43,419 bases of DNA from contig CACBRW010000007.1 in NCBI GenBank assembly GCA_902541745.1, positions 1-43,419 on the forward strand, written 5' to 3'. Numbering within the stretch: the stretch's first letter is position 1; each line of letters begins with the position of its first letter. The stretch comes from an uncultured Pelagibacteraceae bacterium. GTDB lineage: Bacteria; Pseudomonadota; Alphaproteobacteria; Pelagibacterales; Pelagibacteraceae. Shown here piece after piece: positions 5,350-40,563 of the stretch. A program made the translations under genes and the position numbers. Below the pieces are notes generated by a model. That model searched no databases. It saw nothing but the letters and a program-made list of their open reading frames with translations, and was not told where the DNA came from.

Positions 5350-5461
5350 ATTTTATTTATAGCGGATGTTAAAAATACAAAAAAAGGCAATAAAATGATA
5401 TTAAATAAGGTGTAATTCTTATTAATTGACTTAAATCATTTAACAGATACAAATTCATTAT

Positions 5462-5601
5462 CGGGAGAGACTATTTATAGCGCCGAAGGAGCAACCACCC
5501 CGGAAACTCTCAGGCAAAAGGACCGATTAAAGCATAACACTCTGGAAAGAGATTGATTTCCGCCGAAGGAGTAAAGCTCTCAGGCAAAAATACAGATGGG
5601 G
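5462..5601 (+). promoter_or_regulatory. Tandem glycine riboswitch upstream of malate synthase
   Basis: Two copies of the glycine aptamer core: CGCCGAAGGAGCAA...CTCTCAGGCAAAAGGACCG and CGCCGAAGGAGTAAAGCTCTCAGGCAAAAATACAGATGGGG, directly 5' of glcB. Confidence 0.93.
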
Positions 5602-31422: not shown

Positions 31423-32520
31423 TTATTTTTTAACTTGTCTATTTCTCTCAACAAAATTCTCAACGTTTTCAGTTTGTATAGCTTTCTCAACCTGCTCGGG
31501 ATCTTTAATGTTTTCTAAAGTTCTTGAAATTGATCTTGCATCCGTTCCAAATTTATCAACAACTCCCATAGCATCCTCTAATTTTTTTCTTAGAACTATA
31601 ATGTTGTCAAAATGTTTAGAAAATCTTGTACTGATTGTTTTTAAATGATCATAAATCTCTGTGGCATTTTTAGAAATCTTGAGAGATTGAAATCCCATAT
31701 GCAAAGATTGCAAGTACGCAGAAAGAGTGTTAGGCCCACATATTACAACTTTATATTTTTTCATTAATTCTTGGGTTAATAATTCTTTTGTACTTGGATC
31801 TTGATATTCAGTTAGCTCTTTATACAAACTTTCTGTTGGTGCATATACAATTGCAAAATCAGTAGTTTTTGGTGGTGAAATATATTTTTCATTTACACTT
31901 TTAGCTTTTGCTTTAAATGCTGAGGCTAATTTTGCTCTAGCATCTGCAACAGCCCGTTTATCTTCCGCGTCATGACCATCGGTAATTGCCTTAAATTTTT
32001 CAACTGGAAAATGACTATCTACAGGAACCAAAACATCCCCTTGAAGCTTAATGGCAAATTCTACATTCTCACTAGTATTATCTTTCATCTTCACATTAGT
32101 CATGAACTGAGATGAAGGTAAAAGATCTTTTATTAAAGCCTCTAAAGAAAATTCTGCCAAAACCCCGTATTTTTTCACTCCAGCAAAAATTTTTGTAATA
32201 CCCTCTTGGCTTTGATTTAATAATTGAACTTGTTGGTTAAAATTTCCAACTTTTTCATCTACCTTTGTTAATGCTGCAGTCATATCTTTAGTAACACCTG
32301 TCGACAAGTTGTTGAATGAAGTAGACATTGCACCAAGTGATGTATTAATTGTATTATTCAAAGTATCTTTTAAACTTGAAATTTCTAATTTTAAATTAGC
32401 TATTTCTTCTGCTTCCTTATTTTGATTTTCATCTGTTGTTTTAGTTTTTAAATTTAAGTACAGGATAGCTAAAGCCACTCCTAATAATAAAACCAAAATA
32501 ATTAATAAAACTGTATCCAT
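31423..32520 (-). CDS. rmuC: RmuC family DNA recombination protein
   Basis: N-terminal TM, coiled coil, VEFAIKLQGDVLVPVDSHFPVEKF, VICGPNTLSAYLQSLHMGFQSLKI. Confidence 0.9.
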   Translation of the reverse strand: MDTVLLIILVLLLGVALAILYLNLKTKTTDENQNKEAEEIANLKLEISSLKDTLNNTINTSLGAMSTSFNNLSTGVTKDMTAALTKVDEKVGNFNQQVQLLNQSQEGITKIFAGVKKYGVLAEFSLEALIKDLLPSSQFMTNVKMKDNTSENVEFAIKLQGDVLVPVDSHFPVEKFKAITDGHDAEDKRAVADARAKLASAFKAKAKSVNEKYISPPKTTDFAIVYAPTESLYKELTEYQDPSTKELLTQELMKKYKVVICGPNTLSAYLQSLHMGFQSLKISKNATEIYDHLKTISTRFSKHFDNIIVLRKKLEDAMGVVDKFGTDARSISRTLENIKDPEQVEKAIQTENVENFVERNRQVKK

Positions 32521-32562
32521 GATTCGTATGTTATACCTCCTTGATTATATTTAAAGTTTTTT

Positions 32563-32772
32563 TCAATTTACTTTTACGATTAGATTGTTTTTTAAAGTAA
32601 CTTCTGCAAAAAATTCTTTCCCAGAATTACTTGTTAAATGAGGTCTATTACTGCCAACCAAAATGCCATTAGACTTATATTCCAGCCCAAAAATGCTAGT
32701 TTCTGTGTAATTAAGCTTTTTACCAATATTAGCTTTAAGCTCTTTTTTTGATCTGTAATTAAAAATAAGCAT
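32563..32772 (-). CDS. Small hypothetical protein (69 aa)
   Basis: ORF with coding-like composition; overlaps the stop/start boundary of the upstream collinear gene at 32772. Confidence 0.55.
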   Translation of the reverse strand: MLIFNYRSKKELKANIGKKLNYTETSIFGLEYKSNGILVGSNRPHLTSNSGKEFFAEVTLKNNLIVKVN

Positions 32773-33062
32773 TAATTGAGTAACCTTTTTGGAACCTTCC
32801 CCATCATAATTTCCTTCATATCAGAAAATTCATTGGCAACATGATTTTGAACTGTTTTTATAAAAGAATTAATTGTTTTTTTATCAAAACCTAAATTTTT
32901 AAGAATATCTTTAGCCTCTTTTTCATTTTCAGTTGAAATATAGTGCTCGGCTATAGATAAATATCTAAAGAAAACTTCTTTTTGATTTTCTGTTTTAAGT
33001 TCAGATAGTTTCAACTCCATTAAGTAACTTTTATCCATGATTTGGTAAATATCTTTAGGCAA
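32772..33062 (-). CDS. Hypothetical protein (96 aa)
   Basis: Collinear ORF overlapping the vsr 3' end (33055-33062). Confidence 0.6.
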   Translation of the reverse strand: MPKDIYQIMDKSYLMELKLSELKTENQKEVFFRYLSIAEHYISTENEKEAKDILKNLGFDKKTINSFIKTVQNHVANEFSDMKEIMMGKVPKRLLN

Positions 33063-33429
33063 TGATTAGACGTTCCAGAGTGTTAAAAGTTTTATCGATA
33101 TTCTTTCTTTTTAAAGTACACTCCCATACATCAATTACTTTCCAGCCTAATTTAATTAATTTACTTTTATTCAAAAAGTCTCTTTTCTTATTAAGCTCCA
33201 ATCTTTCTATCCAATATTGAGTTTTAGTTTTTGGTACATTGCTATGAGCGCAGCCATGATAATGCCAATAGCAACCGTGGACATTTAAAATTGTTTTATG
33301 TTTATGAAGAACAATATCTGGTTTACCAGGAAGTTTTTTTACATGAATTCTAAATCTGTATCCGTTCTCATATAGTTTAGATCTTATTAATTTTTCTGGT
33401 TTTGTATTTTTAGACTTTGATAATGCCAT
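33055..33429 (-). CDS. vsr: Very short patch repair (Vsr)-like endonuclease
   Basis: SKNTKPEKLIRSKLYENGYRFRIHVKKLPGKPDIVL, VHGCYWHYHGC, NKKRD, LGWKVIDVWEC: Vsr motifs complete. Confidence 0.92.
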   Translation of the reverse strand: MALSKSKNTKPEKLIRSKLYENGYRFRIHVKKLPGKPDIVLHKHKTILNVHGCYWHYHGCAHSNVPKTKTQYWIERLELNKKRDFLNKSKLIKLGWKVIDVWECTLKRKNIDKTFNTLERLIIA

Positions 33430-33446
33430 ATTTAAAATTTCTTAAT

Positions 33447-34637
33447 TCATTTAATTAAATTCAGATTGTTTTTTTCACTTATTACTTTTACTACAGTACT
33501 TAAATCGTTAAAATTTTTCTTATCTTCATATCTTCTAAAAACTTCTTGATCTAAATTTGAAAAATGGTCATCTTGAAATTTCTCATTTGATATTGATTTA
33601 TCTAAAGCTGCAAAATTTCTAAGTTTTCTCCATACTCCTGTGGGATTTCTAAAATTATCATTAGGATCAAAATTTTCTCCATGTTCATTTTTAAGTAATT
33701 TGATTGCTGAACTAATGGAACTATGGACTTCTCCAACCTCACCCAATATTTCTTCTTTGTCCTCTTTATGATAAAACCACAAACAAATAGATAATTCATT
33801 TCTTGTCCAAGGAGGATTTTTTTTCTTTTCACTTTTATTACCTGATCTAGCATCAATATCTTTCCAAATACCAAATTCATCCTTTATTTCAGAATTTATT
33901 TCTGAAGGACTCAGATCCCAAACATCTTTATTTTTAGAAAGTATTAAAATATCTTTATATAATCTTGGATAAAGAACTCCTTTTTGATTATATTCAGTAC
34001 CATTATCATCTTTTATTTTTCGATGATTATCTGCTCCTTTTCTTTGCTTTCCAGCTACTGGATCAAAATATAAATCATAGCAAAGTTGAACTACGCTTGG
34101 GTTTTTCCATAAATCCATTCTTGAAATGAATTGTTCACACATATTTGATCCCTGATGTGTTGGAGTAGATAAGCAAAATTTTAAGCTTTCAACTTGTGTC
34201 GGGTTTGTTGCGACTAGTATCCAAGGAGTCCTTATTAAATGTCTTTTCCCTTGAAAAAATCTTTTTTTGTAAATAAATCTAACTATTTCCGTTGCTCTAC
34301 CACTAAATACATTTTTTATGTAAAAAGCAGTTAGCCAATTCCATAAATTTACATCATTATTAATTTTTGCAAAATCACATTTGGAAAGTTTATTAAATAG
34401 ATACACCCCAAGCTCATGCCTGTCCTTAAAACTTTTTTGCTCTATCTCATCTGCTTGTTCAACTGTCTCTACTTTCGATACATTTTTAGATAACTCAATA
34501 ATTTGTTTTAATAATTTTTGAACTTTCGTGCTTTCTAACTTATTTTTTTTTCCAACAGAACAAAGTTCTTCAATCTTATTTTCAAATTCCTCATTACCTG
34601 TCTTGTTAAATCTCTTAATTTTAATCATTTTTTCCAC
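33447..34637 (-). CDS. DUF6339-like protein with a C-terminal McrA-associated-like region
   Basis: LWNWLTAFYI...RHLIRTPW...NPSVVQLCYDLYFDPVAGKQRKGA resembles DUF6339; C-terminal WTRNELSICLWFY...FRNPTGVWRKLRNFAALD resembles the region preceding HNH in McrA-like endonucleases; recognised from memory only. Confidence 0.6.
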   Translation of the reverse strand: MEKMIKIKRFNKTGNEEFENKIEELCSVGKKNKLESTKVQKLLKQIIELSKNVSKVETVEQADEIEQKSFKDRHELGVYLFNKLSKCDFAKINNDVNLWNWLTAFYIKNVFSGRATEIVRFIYKKRFFQGKRHLIRTPWILVATNPTQVESLKFCLSTPTHQGSNMCEQFISRMDLWKNPSVVQLCYDLYFDPVAGKQRKGADNHRKIKDDNGTEYNQKGVLYPRLYKDILILSKNKDVWDLSPSEINSEIKDEFGIWKDIDARSGNKSEKKKNPPWTRNELSICLWFYHKEDKEEILGEVGEVHSSISSAIKLLKNEHGENFDPNDNFRNPTGVWRKLRNFAALDKSISNEKFQDDHFSNLDQEVFRRYEDKKNFNDLSTVVKVISEKNNLNLIK

Positions 34638-35422
34638 AATAGCTTTTTGTTTGGCTCTATGTCCTCATTTGGCATTATATCGATAAGTTTAAGATTTTTT
34701 TTATTTGGTTTTTCTGTAAATCTTGATACAGCATCATTTATCCATTTTTCACCTTCTGTAAAATTTTCATCTCCAGAATAAAAATCAGATTTTGATGGTG
34801 GTTTTCTTCCAACAAGTTCAGAAAAGTGTTTAACCCAATTTTTTTGATATTCACAATCTTGAAATTCATCTGGCATTAGTAAATATTTTGTTAGAACTTG
34901 ATTTATTGCTGCTGTGAAAATAAAAACTTTAAAAAAATTTGACTCCTTTAAAAGGACTTTAAGACCATAATTTTTTTTAAAATAAACAGTTGGGATTTCA
35001 TCAGGGCTTACCTCAATTTCAAAAATTCCATCCTGCTCCCTCTCTGCATATTTTAATAAAGTACTTCCTTGTTTAGGTTTAATTGGTTCTATTAAACATA
35101 AAATATTTTTATTTTTATCAACTATCTTAAAAGAAAAATTTAAACCATCTCTAGAAGTTTCCACATCTTTTATTTCACTCAAAGGATTTTCAACAGTCCC
35201 AAAATCAAAAGGGGTTGAAACAAAATTATCACCAGATGTAGAATAAAGTTGAATTCTGATCTTTGAGTCACCAGGAAAGTCTCTTTTTTTATCAAAGTTA
35301 AAAAATGGTTCAAACTTTATACCGTTGTCGGTATCATAAATTTTTATTTCAACCTCTGGATTATCACCACCAGTTCTTAAGAAATCTTTTCTTCCAGTAT
35401 AATTAAAAGTACTTACACCCAT
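34625..35422 (-). CDS. Hypothetical protein, 'FNYTGR' N-terminus, paraMORC-operon partner
   Basis: 265 aa ORF starting MGVSTFNYTGRKDF, 3 bp from the paraMORC stop and overlapping the next gene. Confidence 0.7.
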   Translation of the reverse strand: MGVSTFNYTGRKDFLRTGGDNPEVEIKIYDTDNGIKFEPFFNFDKKRDFPGDSKIRIQLYSTSGDNFVSTPFDFGTVENPLSEIKDVETSRDGLNFSFKIVDKNKNILCLIEPIKPKQGSTLLKYAEREQDGIFEIEVSPDEIPTVYFKKNYGLKVLLKESNFFKVFIFTAAINQVLTKYLLMPDEFQDCEYQKNWVKHFSELVGRKPPSKSDFYSGDENFTEGEKWINDAVSRFTEKPNKKNLKLIDIMPNEDIEPNKKLLWKK

Positions 35423-35425
35423 ATT

Positions 35426-37559
35426 CTAATTTTCAATTTTTCCTACCCATGGTCTAATAGTCAGGTCAGAGGGCACTCCCTTTTTTGAAGAAAGTTTATT
35501 TGTTATTAATTCATAATAAAAATCACTATTTTCAACTTTAAATGTAATTAAATTTCCTTCTTCCCCACCTTCATCTAAATCCTTTAGTCCTTTTTTTTCA
35601 ATATTAAACTTTGATCCTATATCCTTTTTAAAATGAAAATCATTTATAGGATCATAAAATTTTTTACTTCTCTTGCCGCCATATTTTTGAAGATCTTCAT
35701 AAATATGCAGCCTTACATTACAAGGATATAAATCTTTACAATTATTTAATAATCGTTTTTCTAATTTCTTTTTTTGTTTTTTTAGCCTATTTAAATCATC
35801 CTCTGTAATATCTTTTTCTTTTGCTTCATCATCTTTCAATTCTTTTTTCTCTTTCTTTTTCTTATCAATTTCAATTAATTTATTTATCTCATCAATATTT
35901 TTTTGAGTTTCCTTTTCAACATCTGATCCTGAAATTGCAAAGCCATATTTTTTATTTTTTTCTAATTTCCTAATTTCATAAATTTTTGGATCATCAAATA
36001 AATATTTTGGAATTTTAAATCTAGTTACTTTTCCGTTTCCATCAGTATCTGAAGAGCTTTCATCCTCATTCTCATCATCATCACCAAATCCAAACCAATC
36101 TTTTGTAGCATCAATACTTTTGGACTCAGCATCACTCTCTACAAGAGCGTTATGAAATGACTCAGATAAATTTTTAATAAGTCTAATTTCATTACTAGGC
36201 CTAACATAAATGTTTTTTTCTTTTAAAGTTGCTGCATCAAAAGTTTTATGATTTTCAGATTCTGATAGTCTGCAAAATTCTGCGGTTTCTTGATCATCTA
36301 TAATTGTCAATCCATGAACGTCTCTCTGATCAAATTTTCTTTCACCAGAAACAGGCATTAGCTGTCTAATTAAATCATCGCACCCATGATTTGACTCTGT
36401 TTTTTTAATAAAAAATTTCACTGATGCGTCAAAACTTGAATTATCTTGCTTTTCAATATTAAAAGTTGCTTTTACACCAATTAATTTTTCATTATCAAAA
36501 TCTTTAGAAAGTCTATCTAATTCCTCTTTTGATATAAAATTTTTTTTAAATTTTGAAGAATGCTCATCAATCTTTAAAATAAAAAAATCCTCATTATTAA
36601 AAGCACTTACATTGTTAAGAAAATCAAAATATTTCTTATATTTATTTAATTCTTCAGGTAAGTGTTTTTTGACAAAATCTATAATTTTTTCTCTGTTTAA
36701 AATTTGTCCATTAATCTCAAGTTCTATTTGATTGTTAAAAATTGCATATCTGTATCTATCAACAATATTTCTATACATTAATTTCCATGAACAAACTTCT
36801 TGGTTTGGAAATGGAACAATCATACTCAAACCTGGTTCATCAAATTCTCTAGTTAATTTTAAACCCTGATGTATCTCTTTAAGTTTATTTTCATCCATAA
36901 CAGGTGAAAAATAATCATTTTTCATTACACCAAATCTTGCGAATGGGTCTAAACTATTTCCATTTTTATCCTCATTTTTTCCTAATACTGACAAACCACA
37001 AAATATTTTTTTTCCTTTTTTTTTATCTGATGGCACAGAGTAAGAAAAAAATGTCTGAATATTAGATGAGTATGCAAAAGTTAATCTTCCAATTCCAACG
37101 CTGCCTCCTTTACCTTTTTCTTTATCACCTGAAAATATAGACCACCAGAAAGCATAAAAGTCATTTCTTTTATTATCTATTTTCCTTTTGTGAATATCTG
37201 GATCTCCTGTAATACCAGTTGTATTAAAATCCTCAAATAACAAACAAGGTACCTCTTTAATTTTTTTATTTAATATATCTTTATTTTCATTTTCTATTGC
37301 GTCTGATTTATCAATGAAATCTTTAAAATTTTCATCTACTAAATTTTCGTGAAAAAAGTCATAAGAAACTTTTACTAAAGAAATTTTGATTTTCGGTTTT
37401 TTTCCCTTCTTGAGAGTTATCACCTGTATTTTGAGTACCCTCTTCACCTAATGGAGTAGAATGTTCATCAAAAAAATTTTTTCTTATAGGAGGCAATGAT
37501 GGAGCTGTAATGTTTGGTCTGTAACTCTCTCGATGCCAATAAGGCAAATTTTTACTCAT
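35426..37559 (-). CDS. paraMORC-type GHKL ATPase, interrupted by an apparent +1 frameshift at 37397-37403
   Basis: LLFEDFNTTGITGDPD (D-x-G-like motif), WWSIFSGDKEKGKGGSVGIGRLTFAYSSNIQTFFSYSV (glycine-rich ATP lid), DEPGLSMIVPFP; N-terminus MSKNLPYWHRESYRPNIT joins through NSQEGKKPKIKISLVKVSYDFF on removing one coding-strand A. Confidence 0.75.
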
Positions 37560-37830
37560 AATTTTTCAACTCTCTTTTTATAACCTTGATTTCATTTAAG
37601 CATTTGCTTAAAATAAATCTGCTTTTTAAAACTTTGATAAATTTTAGTGTATTAGTTGGTAAATTAAGTATTTTGTTTAATAAAAATAATATTTTATTAT
37701 TTTTATAAAACTCTAATTCTGTTTTTTTTGTAAATTCAACACTCTGTAAATATATTGTATAATCCTTTGCAAATTCTTGAGCGTATTGCAATCTATCCTG
37801 CAAACAAGAATGGAAATAATTTTTTTTCAA
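37552..37830 (-). CDS. Small hypothetical protein (92 aa)
   Basis: TTG start preceded by AGGA; stop overlaps the paraMORC start (37552-37559), consistent with translational coupling. Confidence 0.6.
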   Translation of the reverse strand: MKKNYFHSCLQDRLQYAQEFAKDYTIYLQSVEFTKKTELEFYKNNKILFLLNKILNLPTNTLKFIKVLKSRFILSKCLNEIKVIKRELKNYE

Positions 37831-37849
37831 TCAAATTCCTTTATAGTTA

Positions 37850-38060
37850 TTTTTTAACGCGTACAAGCTACATAGAAAGAAAGAAAGGTGTAGCTTTGCA
37901 CGCATTAAAATTTGCACAGTTAACTTGCTAATTGCAACTTTTGAACTTAAGCATAAGACAAAACCAGGATGCACTCTGGTGAGAGGTTTACTATAAGTTC
38001 TAACGATAGAGTTGCATACCGTGTATGACAACCTCCTCTTTATAACGTGCATCAATTCCA
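37850..38060. ncRNA. Candidate structured RNA element within the paraMORC operon
   Basis: Higher GC (about 38% by hand count over 37861-38040) and several complementary stems: 37859-37872/37889-37903, 37968-37974/38047-38053, 37981-37986/38032-38038, 38011-38019/38023-38032. Confidence 0.45.
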
Positions 38061-38072
38061 TAATTCGCATAA

Positions 38073-38420
38073 TTAAAAGTATTTTTTTTCCCTATCTACT
38101 TTTGTAAAAGCATGCCTCAAATTACTTAAAGCATCCTGTAAATTTTTTATGATAACTTTGGCCTCCTCATCTGAATACTCATAGCTATTTTTATTAGCCA
38201 TGTTCTCACACAGTCCAATTGCTTCAATAGCTCTTTTAAGCCTTTTTTCCCTGTATTTGATAAATCTCTCTCTTCGGGTTAGCTTTTTTTCTTTATCCTC
38301 TTCTGACATTTTTTTTCCTTTCTTTTCTATTTTGTCTAAAGCGTTCAATTCTCTTGTTATTTCCCATAAATTGAGGTTTTTTCTCTCAAAAATACCAATA
38401 TAACTACCTAAACTATCCAT
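38073..38420 (-). CDS. Small charged helical hypothetical protein (115 aa), head of the paraMORC operon
   Basis: ORF with coding-like Lys/Glu-rich composition; divergent from the methyltransferase. Confidence 0.6.
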   Translation of the reverse strand: MDSLGSYIGIFERKNLNLWEITRELNALDKIEKKGKKMSEEDKEKKLTRRERFIKYREKRLKRAIEAIGLCENMANKNSYEYSDEEAKVIIKNLQDALSNLRHAFTKVDREKKYF

Positions 38421-38435
38421 AAACCTCTATATAAT

Positions 38436-38526
38436 ACAACATTATTGTTTTGTCTAGTGTTATTTTTAAATTATTTGTATATTTTTGTTCTGTGTAATAC
38501 ATTTTGCTTTTATTACACAACATTAT
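38436..38526. promoter_or_regulatory. Divergent intergenic region with perfect inverted repeat and direct repeats
   Basis: TGTGTAATA (38491-38499) and TATTACACA (38511-38519) are perfect reverse complements; ACAACATTAT occurs at 38436-38445 and 38517-38526. Confidence 0.5.
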
Positions 38527-38544
38527 GGCTATATTGTGAGTTGT

Positions 38545-39741
38545 ATGAAAAAAAAAATAGCTGAATTATTCTGTGGTGCTGGAGGTTTTGCTGAAGGAGC
38601 CAAAGAAGCAGGATTTAAACATGTATGGGGTGTCGACAATCATCAGGACTCTTGTAAATCATTTGAAGATAACCAGGGATGCGAGTCTTATTGTGAAGAT
38701 ATTGAAAATTTTACTAAACCTTCGAGACTAAAGAAAATTAGAGAAAATCATGGAGATATAGATGGTCTATTATTTGGTTTTCCATGCAATGATTTTAGTT
38801 TGGTTGGAAAAAATCAAAAAATGGAAGGTAAATTTGGAGGGCTTTACAAGTATGCATGCAAAGTTCTTAACTTTTTTGAACCAGAATTTTTTGTTGCTGA
38901 AAATGTTACAGCTCTTGGAAAAAAATTAAAATTTAATTCATCTGAACAATTACTTGTAAAAGATATTTTTGATAAAGAAAAGTTACAAAATCAAAATTAT
39001 CAGAATTTTAAAAAAATAATGGGAGATCTGGCAAATTGTACTGAAAATGGTTATCGAATTTATGCAGATAATTATAAATTTGAGGAATATGGTGTTCCTC
39101 AAACTAGACACAGAATTATATTAGTTGGATTTAGAGAAGATTATTTTATCAAAAACAAAATAAATTTTGAAAAACCAAAAAAAATTGAGGGTGACTTTGT
39201 AACCTGTAAAAAAGCTTTAGACAAAATACCAAAATGGGCAACACACCAGGAAAAAACCAAACATGATGATAAAGTAATCAGACGTTTACAAAAAACAGCT
39301 GAAGGCAAAAACGTTTGGGATTTAGGAAATGATGAAGACGGATTACCAGGTGTCAAAAAAGCAAGAATGAGTCATATTTACAAAAGATTAGATAGTTCAA
39401 AACCTGCTTATACAGTAACTGGAAGTGGTGGTGGCGGAACCCATGTTTATCATTATAAAGAAGACAGAGCTTTAACAAATAGAGAAAGAGCAAGATTACA
39501 AACTTTTCCTGATAAATATAATTTTTTTGGTGGTAAAGAGTCTGTTAGAAGACAAATCGGAATGGCAGTTCCAGTGCTGGGAGCAGAAAAAATAATGAAA
39601 GCTGTAAAAAAATCTTTGAAAAAATCAAAAAAACAAATTTCTTTTCATCACGATTGGATGATTAAAGGAAAAGGGAAGGATTTATATTTTACTGGAAAAG
39701 AAGATTTAAGTCCTCAGATGAGTTTTGATTTTAATAATTAA
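38545..39741 (+). CDS. DNA (cytosine-5-)-methyltransferase
   Basis: IAELFCGAGGFAEGAKEAGF (motif I), FGFPCNDFSLVGKNQ (motif IV), VAENV (VI), YGVPQTRHRIILVG (VIII), RERARLQTFPDKYNFFG...RQIGMAVPV (IX/X). Confidence 0.95.
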   Translation: MKKKIAELFCGAGGFAEGAKEAGFKHVWGVDNHQDSCKSFEDNQGCESYCEDIENFTKPSRLKKIRENHGDIDGLLFGFPCNDFSLVGKNQKMEGKFGGLYKYACKVLNFFEPEFFVAENVTALGKKLKFNSSEQLLVKDIFDKEKLQNQNYQNFKKIMGDLANCTENGYRIYADNYKFEEYGVPQTRHRIILVGFREDYFIKNKINFEKPKKIEGDFVTCKKALDKIPKWATHQEKTKHDDKVIRRLQKTAEGKNVWDLGNDEDGLPGVKKARMSHIYKRLDSSKPAYTVTGSGGGGTHVYHYKEDRALTNRERARLQTFPDKYNFFGGKESVRRQIGMAVPVLGAEKIMKAVKKSLKKSKKQISFHHDWMIKGKGKDLYFTGKEDLSPQMSFDFNN

Positions 39742-39756
39742 ATGATAAGATAATAA

Positions 39757-39888
39757 ATGGAATTAATTTTTATATTAAAAATTTTATTTGTTATAGGTGC
39801 TCTTATTGCGCTTTATGCTGTGATAAGAAATCTTGATATTATCAAAATTATATTAATTTATTGGAAAGACTTAATTTTTAGAAAGTAA
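39757..39888 (+). CDS. Small membrane protein (43 aa), convergent with hisG
   Basis: ATG...TAA: MELIFILKILFVIGALIALYAVIRNLDIIKIILIYWKDLIFRK; one hydrophobic segment. Confidence 0.45.
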   Translation: MELIFILKILFVIGALIALYAVIRNLDIIKIILIYWKDLIFRK

Positions 39889-40563
39889 TTTTACTATTTT
39901 TTTAAGACCCATTTTATTATTGGATGACTTAGAAATCATCATGCAGGCCTCTGATCTTAATATTTCTCCATCCTTCAAAATACGTAGATTGTTTGCTTTT
40001 AACGTTTCTCCGGTAGAAGTGATATCTGTAATTATTTCCGATGAGCCGGTAAAAGGATAAGCTTCAGTTGCACCCAAACTATCAATTAATTTGAATTGAG
40101 TAACGCCCTTTGAAAACAAAAATTCCCTTGTTAAGTTTGGATATTTTGTTGCTACTCTTAATCTTTTCTTTTTCTTATCTTTAAATTCAAATGCAATTTC
40201 CTCTAAATCTGCAACTGTTTGTACATCTATCCATGGATCAGGAATTGCAACTACTAATGTGGCCTTCCCAAAATTATATCTTTTAAACACATTGACTTTC
40301 TTTTGAGTGTTAATTTCACTTTCCTTTAATAAATCAAAGCCAGAAAAACCTATGTCTAAAGATCCGTCTCCAAGTCTTTCTATGATCTCTCTTGCATGAA
40401 GATATAAAATCTTAATATTTTTAAATTGTTTTATTGATCCTAAAAGGTCTCTCTCTCCTCTTTCAGAAATGAGATTTAATTTATTTTTTTTAAAAATATT
40501 TAAAACATCTTTTCTAAGTCTACCTTTGCTTGGAATTCCAATATTTAAAATATTTTTTGTCAT
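39871..40563 (-). CDS. hisG: ATP phosphoribosyltransferase catalytic subunit (short form)
   Basis: LNIGIPSKGRLRKDVLNIFKK, GDGSLDIGFSGFDLL, SLGATEAYPFTGSSEIITDITSTGETLKANNL. Confidence 0.93.
   Translation of the reverse strand: MTKNILNIGIPSKGRLRKDVLNIFKKNKLNLISERGERDLLGSIKQFKNIKILYLHAREIIERLGDGSLDIGFSGFDLLKESEINTQKKVNVFKRYNFGKATLVVAIPDPWIDVQTVADLEEIAFEFKDKKKKRLRVATKYPNLTREFLFSKGVTQFKLIDSLGATEAYPFTGSSEIITDITSTGETLKANNLRILKDGEILRSEACMMISKSSNNKMGLKKIVKLLSKN

What the first reader, a model, noticed from the sequence alone, without database searches (positions are those of the whole stretch)
32563..39741. Uncharacterised paraMORC / DUF6339-like / Vsr operon with divergent C5 methyltransferase: candidate defence system
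Seen: a packed minus-strand operon whose adjacent genes overlap or lie within about 20 bp. It encodes a small protein, a GHKL ATPase with paraMORC-like motifs, a 265-aa FNYTGR protein, a DUF6339-like protein, a Vsr-like endonuclease and two small proteins, with a C5-MTase divergently transcribed. Established: prokaryotic MORC/paraMORC GHKL ATPases were predicted by Iyer, Abhiman and Aravind (2008) to act in restriction-modification-like systems with SF2 helicases and endonucleases. Inference: this locus is a compact variant, because I find no Z1 or other SF2 helicase and no classical restriction enzyme here; the Vsr-like enzyme is the only evident nuclease in the paraMORC segment. Defence systems are uncommon in streamlined SAR11-type genomes, which adds interest.
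Basis: partly seen in the sequence, partly recalled or inferred. Interest (0 to 1): 0.85.

Follow-up and report, generated by a model that had tools for sequence, protein, structure and literature searches.

The report
Swappable paraMORC restriction cassette island
A streamlined marine-type bacterium carries a 7-kb defence-type island in which a fixed DNA-methylation part is paired with an interchangeable three-gene part built around a MORC/topoisomerase-like ATPase; the three-gene part is a known but untested defence candidate, and its swapping against a constant methylation mark is the new observation.

Summary
The operon is real. It fills a discrete site between hisG and rmuC that lacks it in most related genomes (about 32,530-39,745). 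Its centre is a three-gene unit: A (paraMORC GHKL ATPase), B (the FNYTGR protein) and C (DUF6339-like). In relatives this unit matches PADLOC's untested candidate PDC-M33A/B/C. A relative's predicted fold confirms GHKL (topo VI-B, Hsp90, MORC2). A carries the ExxxH mark of Iyer's paraMORC2 family. A and C recur together at 24 of 24 loci outside the genus, with B detected at 22, across bacteria and archaea; a C5 methyltransferase was found near 17 and a Z1 helicase gene at two.

In eight islands of the genus the methyltransferase (70-93%, specificity loop nearly invariant), Vsr (84-98%), small ORFs and a 230-nt element are conserved, while A, B and C are exchanged together between types only 8-39% identical. 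Vsr does not travel with the triad and is absent from 13 of 24 triad loci, so it is probably a 5mC-repair gene, not the restriction nuclease. No nuclease was recognised in the triad.

The window's A gene has a one-base frame change at an A7 run. Best reading: helicase-free, modification-gated restriction whose effector is swapped under one methylation mark. No function has been tested.

The parts
32530..39745 (.). whole island between rmuC (31423-32520) and hisG (39871-40563)
   Evidence: In most of 29 related genomes without the island, hisG directly abuts rmuC, with no orf69, orf96 or vsr; about 10 of 399 genomes of the genus carry it
38485..39741 (+). C5 cytosine DNA methyltransferase (likely true start ~38545)
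   Evidence: PF00145 1e-60; 70-93% identical among the 8 islands, putative target-recognition stretch nearly invariant
38421..38544 (.). divergent MTase|S promoter region with palindrome TGTGTAATA-N11-TATTACACA (putative operator)
   Evidence: nearly the same in G413, which has the same S type; G415/G501 share a different palindrome
38073..38420 (-). S: small protein (115 aa), putative controller
   Evidence: homologues of 73-82 aa upstream of the triad or vsr in L011, L012, L045, L090; L039 carries one too
37835..38066 (-). 230-nt conserved element without gaps, probably noncoding
   Evidence: 88% mean column identity in 8 islands; fold z -2.7 to -4.9 on the operon strand; full-length copies found only in islands, 7 of 250 genomes
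37552..37830 (-). ORF92, conserved small protein; its 3' end is the upstream edge of the exchanged segment
   Evidence: 82-95% identical in 7 islands; stop overlaps A's start
35426..37559 (-). A: paraMORC GHKL ATPase (PDC-M33A), frame change at the A7 run 37397-37403
   Evidence: PDLC04582 3.8e-15; GHKL fold of relative; N-box in the 66-aa frame
34625..35422 (-). B: FNYTGR protein (PDC-M33B family by homologues)
   Evidence: same position in 9 sister islands; homologues match PDLC04583
33447..34637 (-). C: DUF6339 family (PDC-M33C by homologues) with an extra ~125-aa C-terminal extension unique to this allele
   Evidence: homologues match PF19866 and PDC-M33C; alignment A5; helical model, no fold match
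33055..33429 (-). Vsr mismatch endonuclease, short N-terminus; codon ~5 is the downstream edge of the exchanged segment
   Evidence: TIGR00632 1.3e-35; E. coli Vsr 1cw0 2.9e-27; junction
32772..33062 (-). ORF96, island small protein
   Evidence: 81-99% identical in 8 islands; not detected at the empty sites
32563..32772 (-). ORF69, island small protein
   Evidence: 77-97% identical in the islands where found; not detected at the empty sites

Best explanation
A chromosomal restriction-modification-type defence island made of two separable parts. The fixed part is a C5-MTase (self mark), a Vsr that repairs T:G mismatches arising from deaminated 5-methylcytosine, a small controller-like protein S with palindromic sites, small ORFs and a conserved 230-nt element. 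The exchangeable part is the co-evolved triad A-B-C. Proposed action: A, a MORC/topo VI-B-like GHKL ATPase, dimerises on ATP as a clamp on incoming DNA that lacks the mark; B and C act as its recognition and effector subunits and block or destroy that DNA. Phage pressure favours replacement of the triad by homologous recombination within ORF92 and vsr, while the methylation mark stays the same. Shown by sequence: composition, island boundaries, GHKL fold of a relative, co-transfer of A-B-C, constancy of MTase and Vsr. Inferred: defence function, gating by methylation, the clamp mechanism, and which subunit damages DNA.
For: A: a relative's model matches topo VI-B (4e-8), TRAP1, topo IV, SMCHD1 and human MORC2 (3.8e-4); E, Q, N of the N-box, G boxes and an R...ExxxH motif conserved in 20 sequences. 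A-B-C as a unit: A and C at 24/24 and B at 22/24 loci outside the genus, including 11 loci not used to build the models (11/11 C, 9/11 B). Identity matrices of A, B and C correlate (rho 0.72-0.86, p<=0.004) but A does not correlate with MTase (0.00) or Vsr (0.04). Window and G413 share rmuC 98%, Vsr 98% and S 95%, but A only 27%. G626 carries the G413 triad (93-97%) with an MTase only 72% identical. Modification genes: C5-MTase near 17/24 triads; PAPS-reductase and cysteine-desulfurase genes with a GmrSD_N protein beside one triad, and similar neighbours at a second. PADLOC lists the trio as a phage-defence candidate. SAR11 lacks mutS/mutL and recombines promiscuously (PMC12374537); no MutL above cut-off in 14 genomes of this family.
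Against: No phage challenge or methylome exists. No nuclease was recognised in A, B or C: C has no PDB or viral fold match and B was not modelled. A constant MTase with a wholly changing restriction partner is unusual if the partner must read the same DNA site. The triad occurs without a detected C5-MTase at 7 of 24 loci, so methylation gating is not universal. The window's own A gene has a frame change.
Confidence: 0.58

Rival explanations
1. A self-contained phage-sensing defence triad (PDC-M33) that sits inside an unrelated MTase/Vsr unit for regulation or carriage only; the methylation is not its licence.
For: A does not co-vary with MTase (rho 0.00); 7 of 24 triads have no detected C5-MTase near, e.g. 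Enterococcus with AIPR and Acetoanaerobium with HsdR; an MTase with a nearly invariant specificity loop serves very divergent triads.
Against: MTase near 17/24 triads, often in the same or abutting operon (L035, L091, L094); a different modification-type gene set beside two others.
Confidence: 0.27
2. Iyer-type paraMORC restriction in which Vsr is the DNA-cutting subunit.
For: Vsr is the only recognisable nuclease in the segment; Iyer 2008 lists Vsr-superfamily endonucleases in these neighbourhoods.
Against: Vsr does not travel with the triad (rho 0.04); absent from 13/24 triad loci; 10 of 11 Vsr genes at triad loci sit with a C5-MTase (Fisher p=0.08, not significant); alignable to E. coli Vsr along its length with the zinc and catalytic-region motifs kept.
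Confidence: 0.1
3. The window copy is a decaying allele (not exclusive of the others): the frame change is real and A is inactive, leaving an MTase/Vsr with a silenced effector.
For: One-base frame change at an A7 run in an otherwise open 673-codon frame; seven complete sister copies intact; 125 other homopolymer runs of 7 or more in intact ORFs of the window show no break.
Against: No second lesion in A, B or C; the assembly is partial (82% complete, 55 contigs), so one indel error is plausible.
Confidence: 0.3
4. Ordinary chance clustering of unrelated genes.
For: None found.
Against: Recurrent order in sister islands and 24 other loci; clean empty sites.
Confidence: 0.01

Closest known systems
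PADLOC candidate PDC-M33 (A, B, C)
   Same: same three gene families in the same order: GHKL, ~290 aa protein, DUF6339
   Different: PADLOC lists only a candidate; here it sits in a fixed MTase-Vsr-S island and is exchanged as a unit. The window's B and C fall below PADLOC detection and were assigned through homologues
Iyer/Abhiman/Aravind 2008 paraMORC restriction systems, paraMORC2 family (PMC2292703)
   Same: GHKL fold, ExxxH motif, methylase and Vsr neighbours; the paper's figure 2 legend lists Candidatus Pelagibacter
   Different: no SFII helicase in the island; constant partners B and C were not mentioned in the text read; swapping not described
Z1-associated triad loci (L099, L100)
   Same: A, C and C5-MTase in one cluster, with a B-sized ORF or gap between A and C
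   Different: they carry a ~900-aa Z1 protein; the window does not
Eukaryotic MORC2 / SMCHD1, archaeal topo VI-B
   Same: predicted fold of the GHKL-transducer part
   Different: sequence identity ~10%; no zinc-finger or topoisomerase A partner seen
dcm-vsr modification and repair pairs
   Same: C5-MTase with a zinc-type Vsr
   Different: Vsr has a short N-terminus and the host family lacks MutL

Membership tests
GHKL ATPase superfamily | Bergerat (GHKL) fold | tested here: met
   AlphaFold model of L010 A (27% identical to window A; pLDDT 71.5): 22 PDB matches E<=1e-3, all GHKL proteins
GHKL ATPase superfamily | N-box and glycine boxes | tested here: met
   E, Q, N of the N-box and the G-box glycines conserved; window N-box EGTQNTGD lies in the 66-aa frame. 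Pfam detects no GHKL domain in any of 18 members
paraMORC2 (Iyer 2008) | conserved ExxxH in the C-terminal part of the S5 domain | tested here: met
   E449...H453 invariant in 20 sequences; window has ESENH; definition. Position inside the S5 domain not checked separately
paraMORC restriction systems | SFII helicase in the operon (about 70% of the MORC neighbourhoods) | tested here: not met
   no helicase among the Pfam or NCBIfam matches of the island ORFs
PDC-M33 | A matches PDLC04582 | tested here: met
   3.8e-15
PDC-M33 | B and C match PDLC04583 and PDLC04584-04587 | tested here: inconclusive
   window B and C do not match directly; homologues in the same position do
MORC proper | GhXhhpXXRhl motif in S5 | not tested
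   motif not scanned
restriction-modification system | cognate MTase present | tested here: met
   PF00145 1e-60; that it is cognate is inferred
restriction-modification system | restriction of unmodified DNA | not testable with these tools
   needs experiment
Vsr | PD motif, HGCxWHxHxC and WEC | tested here: met
   alignment to 1cw0

The most novel reading that the evidence does not exclude
A plug-in immunity design: one fixed 5mC mark licenses many very divergent MORC-type effector triads, which are exchanged as a three-gene cassette between species at one chromosomal site. It would restrict without a helicase or any known nuclease, perhaps by ATP-driven trapping of unmarked DNA, and it may be helped by an island-specific structured RNA.
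Probability: 0.25. Interest if true: 0.82.

Novelty: new variant of a known kind. Interest (0 to 1): 0.62.

Why it matters
It turns a vague prediction (bacterial MORC-like ATPases act in restriction) into a minimal three-protein unit with seven intact natural alleles in one genetic setting under one methyltransferase. That makes two open questions directly testable: what bacterial MORC relatives do to DNA, and whether methylation is their self-signal. It also suggests that streamlined, mismatch-repair-lacking ocean-type bacteria can diversify immunity by replacing the effector rather than the specificity.

Tried and rejected
Protein scan of genome contigs with window A found nothing, nor with an Arthrobacter C; the first paraMORC alignment was too divergent to scan. 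Profile search of the PDB with A, B and C gave no GHKL or nuclease hit; the weak 8vd6 hit for C covers one short stretch and was ignored. hhalign of A to MutL found only the N-box, E 0.009, so the fold was settled by structure prediction. C's model has no fold match in PDB or BFVD. Rfam has no credible match to the 230-nt element. Its sense frame is open in all 8 islands, but substitutions show no third-position excess (25/19/19), so coding was judged unlikely. Short matches of the element elsewhere are small fragments, judged chance. RNA covariation is weak: three pairs, all from the same two sequences. A phage search with A gave no match. Vsr as a dedicated partner of A: rejected because they do not co-vary.
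Full report
Observation. The ORFs, strands and packing are as described. Vsr and the C5-MTase are unambiguous. The 673-aa ORF matches PADLOC's PDC-M33A (3.8e-15). It lacks the first GHKL motif, which lies in the preceding 66-aa frame: window EGTQNTGD corresponds to EDGQNKID, EDGQNRGD and EFIQNTID in sister copies, and the 66-aa frame starts at the same stop/start overlap with ORF92 as the sister genes. The two frames are separated by one base at an A7 run, 37397-37403. The window holds 125 runs of 7 or more A/T inside other, intact ORFs, so neither an assembly error nor a true mutation can be excluded.

Where it sits. In most of 29 related genomes without the island hisG lies directly upstream of rmuC and no orf69, orf96 or vsr is present. 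The island is therefore everything from about 32,530 to 39,745. A search of 399 genomes of the genus with Vsr found 11 with a match, window included; ten of these carry the triad (two on broken contigs) and one (G318) carries a different locus with a more distant MTase and Vsr.

A cassette swap. Pairwise identities fall in two classes. MTase is 70-93% identical among islands, ORF92 82-95%, Vsr 84-98% (63-66% to one outlying island, G517) and ORF96 81-99%. A, B and C are only 8-39% identical between types but 77-97% within a type: {G413, G403, G626}, {G501, G552}, {G597, G517}, and singletons window, G415 and G615. The last has DUF6339 and GHKL genes plus an 872-aa protein with RNA polymerase alpha-CTD and sigma region 4 domains. 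A, B and C co-vary (rho 0.72-0.86), while A is uncorrelated with MTase or Vsr. The edges are sharp: the end of ORF92 at A's start codon and about codon 5 of vsr. The putative MTase target-recognition stretch (GKNVWDLG...GTHVYHY) is nearly invariant; its role as the recognition region is inferred from its place late in the C5-MTase fold. The number of loci is eight and some share ancestry, so the p-values are indicative.

A general three-gene unit. Searches seeded with A or C gave 24 loci outside the genus: class relatives L011-L013, L044, L045 and L090-L100; L043 from the same phylum; and plasmids of Rhizobium, Halobacterium, Halomicrobium, Synechococcus, Enterococcus, Acetoanaerobium and Arthrobacter. 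A and C were found in 24, B in 22; in the other two a B-sized ORF or gap lies between them. Thirteen of these loci helped build the models; the eleven later ones did not, and give 11/11 for C and 9/11 for B. Partners vary: C5-MTase near 17, Vsr near 11, Z1 protein in 2, PAPS-reductase, cysteine-desulfurase and GmrSD_N genes in one and probably a second, HsdR in 1, AIPR in 1, and a Shedu gene beside the Arthrobacter triad.

What A is. Pfam finds no GHKL domain in any of 18 members and PDB profile search finds none. The predicted structure of the sister protein L010 (27% identical to the window) matches only GHKL proteins at E<=1e-3: topo VI-B, TRAP1, topo IV, SMCHD1 and human MORC2. R...ExxxH is invariant in 20 sequences, the mark that Iyer and colleagues gave for paraMORC2.

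What Vsr does. Its motifs match E. coli Vsr along the length. It stays with the MTase when the triad changes, is missing from 13 of 24 triad loci, and 10 of the 11 Vsr genes at triad loci have a C5-MTase near (Fisher p=0.08). A repair role is therefore more likely than restriction. Sister and window Vsr lack the N-terminal RSxxM segment present in most relatives from other lineages; the host family has no MutL above cut-off, and the 2008 paper's references include work tying the Vsr N-terminus to MutL.

Regulation. The MTase and S are divergent. Islands with the same S type share a palindrome there (window and G413: TGTGTAATA...TATTACACA, with two changes in G413; G415 and G501: TTGACATT...AATGTCAA). 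S as a controller is inference. A 230-nt element after S is as conserved as the genes, has no gaps, folds better than shuffles on the operon strand (z -2.7 to -4.9), and was found in full only in islands. Covariation is too weak to claim a structure.

Mechanism. The best reading is modification-gated restriction by an ATP-driven GHKL clamp with B and C as recognition and effector subunits. GHKL fold, unit structure, exchange and constancy of the methylation part are shown by computation; gating, target and the DNA-damaging step are inferred. The clamp idea rests on established behaviour of GHKL relatives (ATP-driven dimerisation; C. elegans MORC-1 topologically entraps DNA, as stated in the abstract of PMC8277788), not on a test here. 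The main rival is a phage-sensing triad indifferent to the MTase.

Novelty. The triad is catalogued as a candidate (PDC-M33) and paraMORC restriction was predicted in 2008. DUF6339 and PDC-M33 appear in no paper of the held library. The exchange of the whole triad beneath a fixed MTase and Vsr is, as far as these searches show, new.

Noticed in passing
window 37835-38066 (-): Gap-free 230-nt element, 88% mean column identity across eight islands, folds better than shuffles on the operon strand, no Rfam match; candidate regulatory RNA.
   Followed up: partly
L026:7036-9654: 872-aa protein with RNA polymerase alpha-CTD and sigma region 4 domains follows the triad in island G615; possibly an extra DNA-binding subunit.
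   Followed up: partly
L097, L098: PDC-M33 triad beside PAPS-reductase-like, cysteine desulfurase and GmrSD_N genes (Pfam-tested in L097; GmrSD_N and HNH_2 in L098), suggesting a phosphorothioation-type partner instead of a C5-MTase.
   Followed up: partly
window 33447-33820 (C-terminus of C): The window's C carries a ~125-aa extension (PPWTRNELSICLW...NPTGVWRKLRNFAALD) absent from its aligned homologues; may be an added DNA-binding domain.
   Followed up: no
hisG, window 39871-40563: Islands G413, G403, G415 and G501 sit beside a hisG only ~50% identical to the window's, so replacement tracts sometimes reach into the histidine genes.
   Followed up: no
L104:760-1600: A different small ORF occupies the hisG-rmuC gap in G358, so the site may be a wider hotspot.
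   Followed up: no
window 5452-5535 (+): Glycine riboswitch aptamer, 65.7 bits.
   Followed up: no
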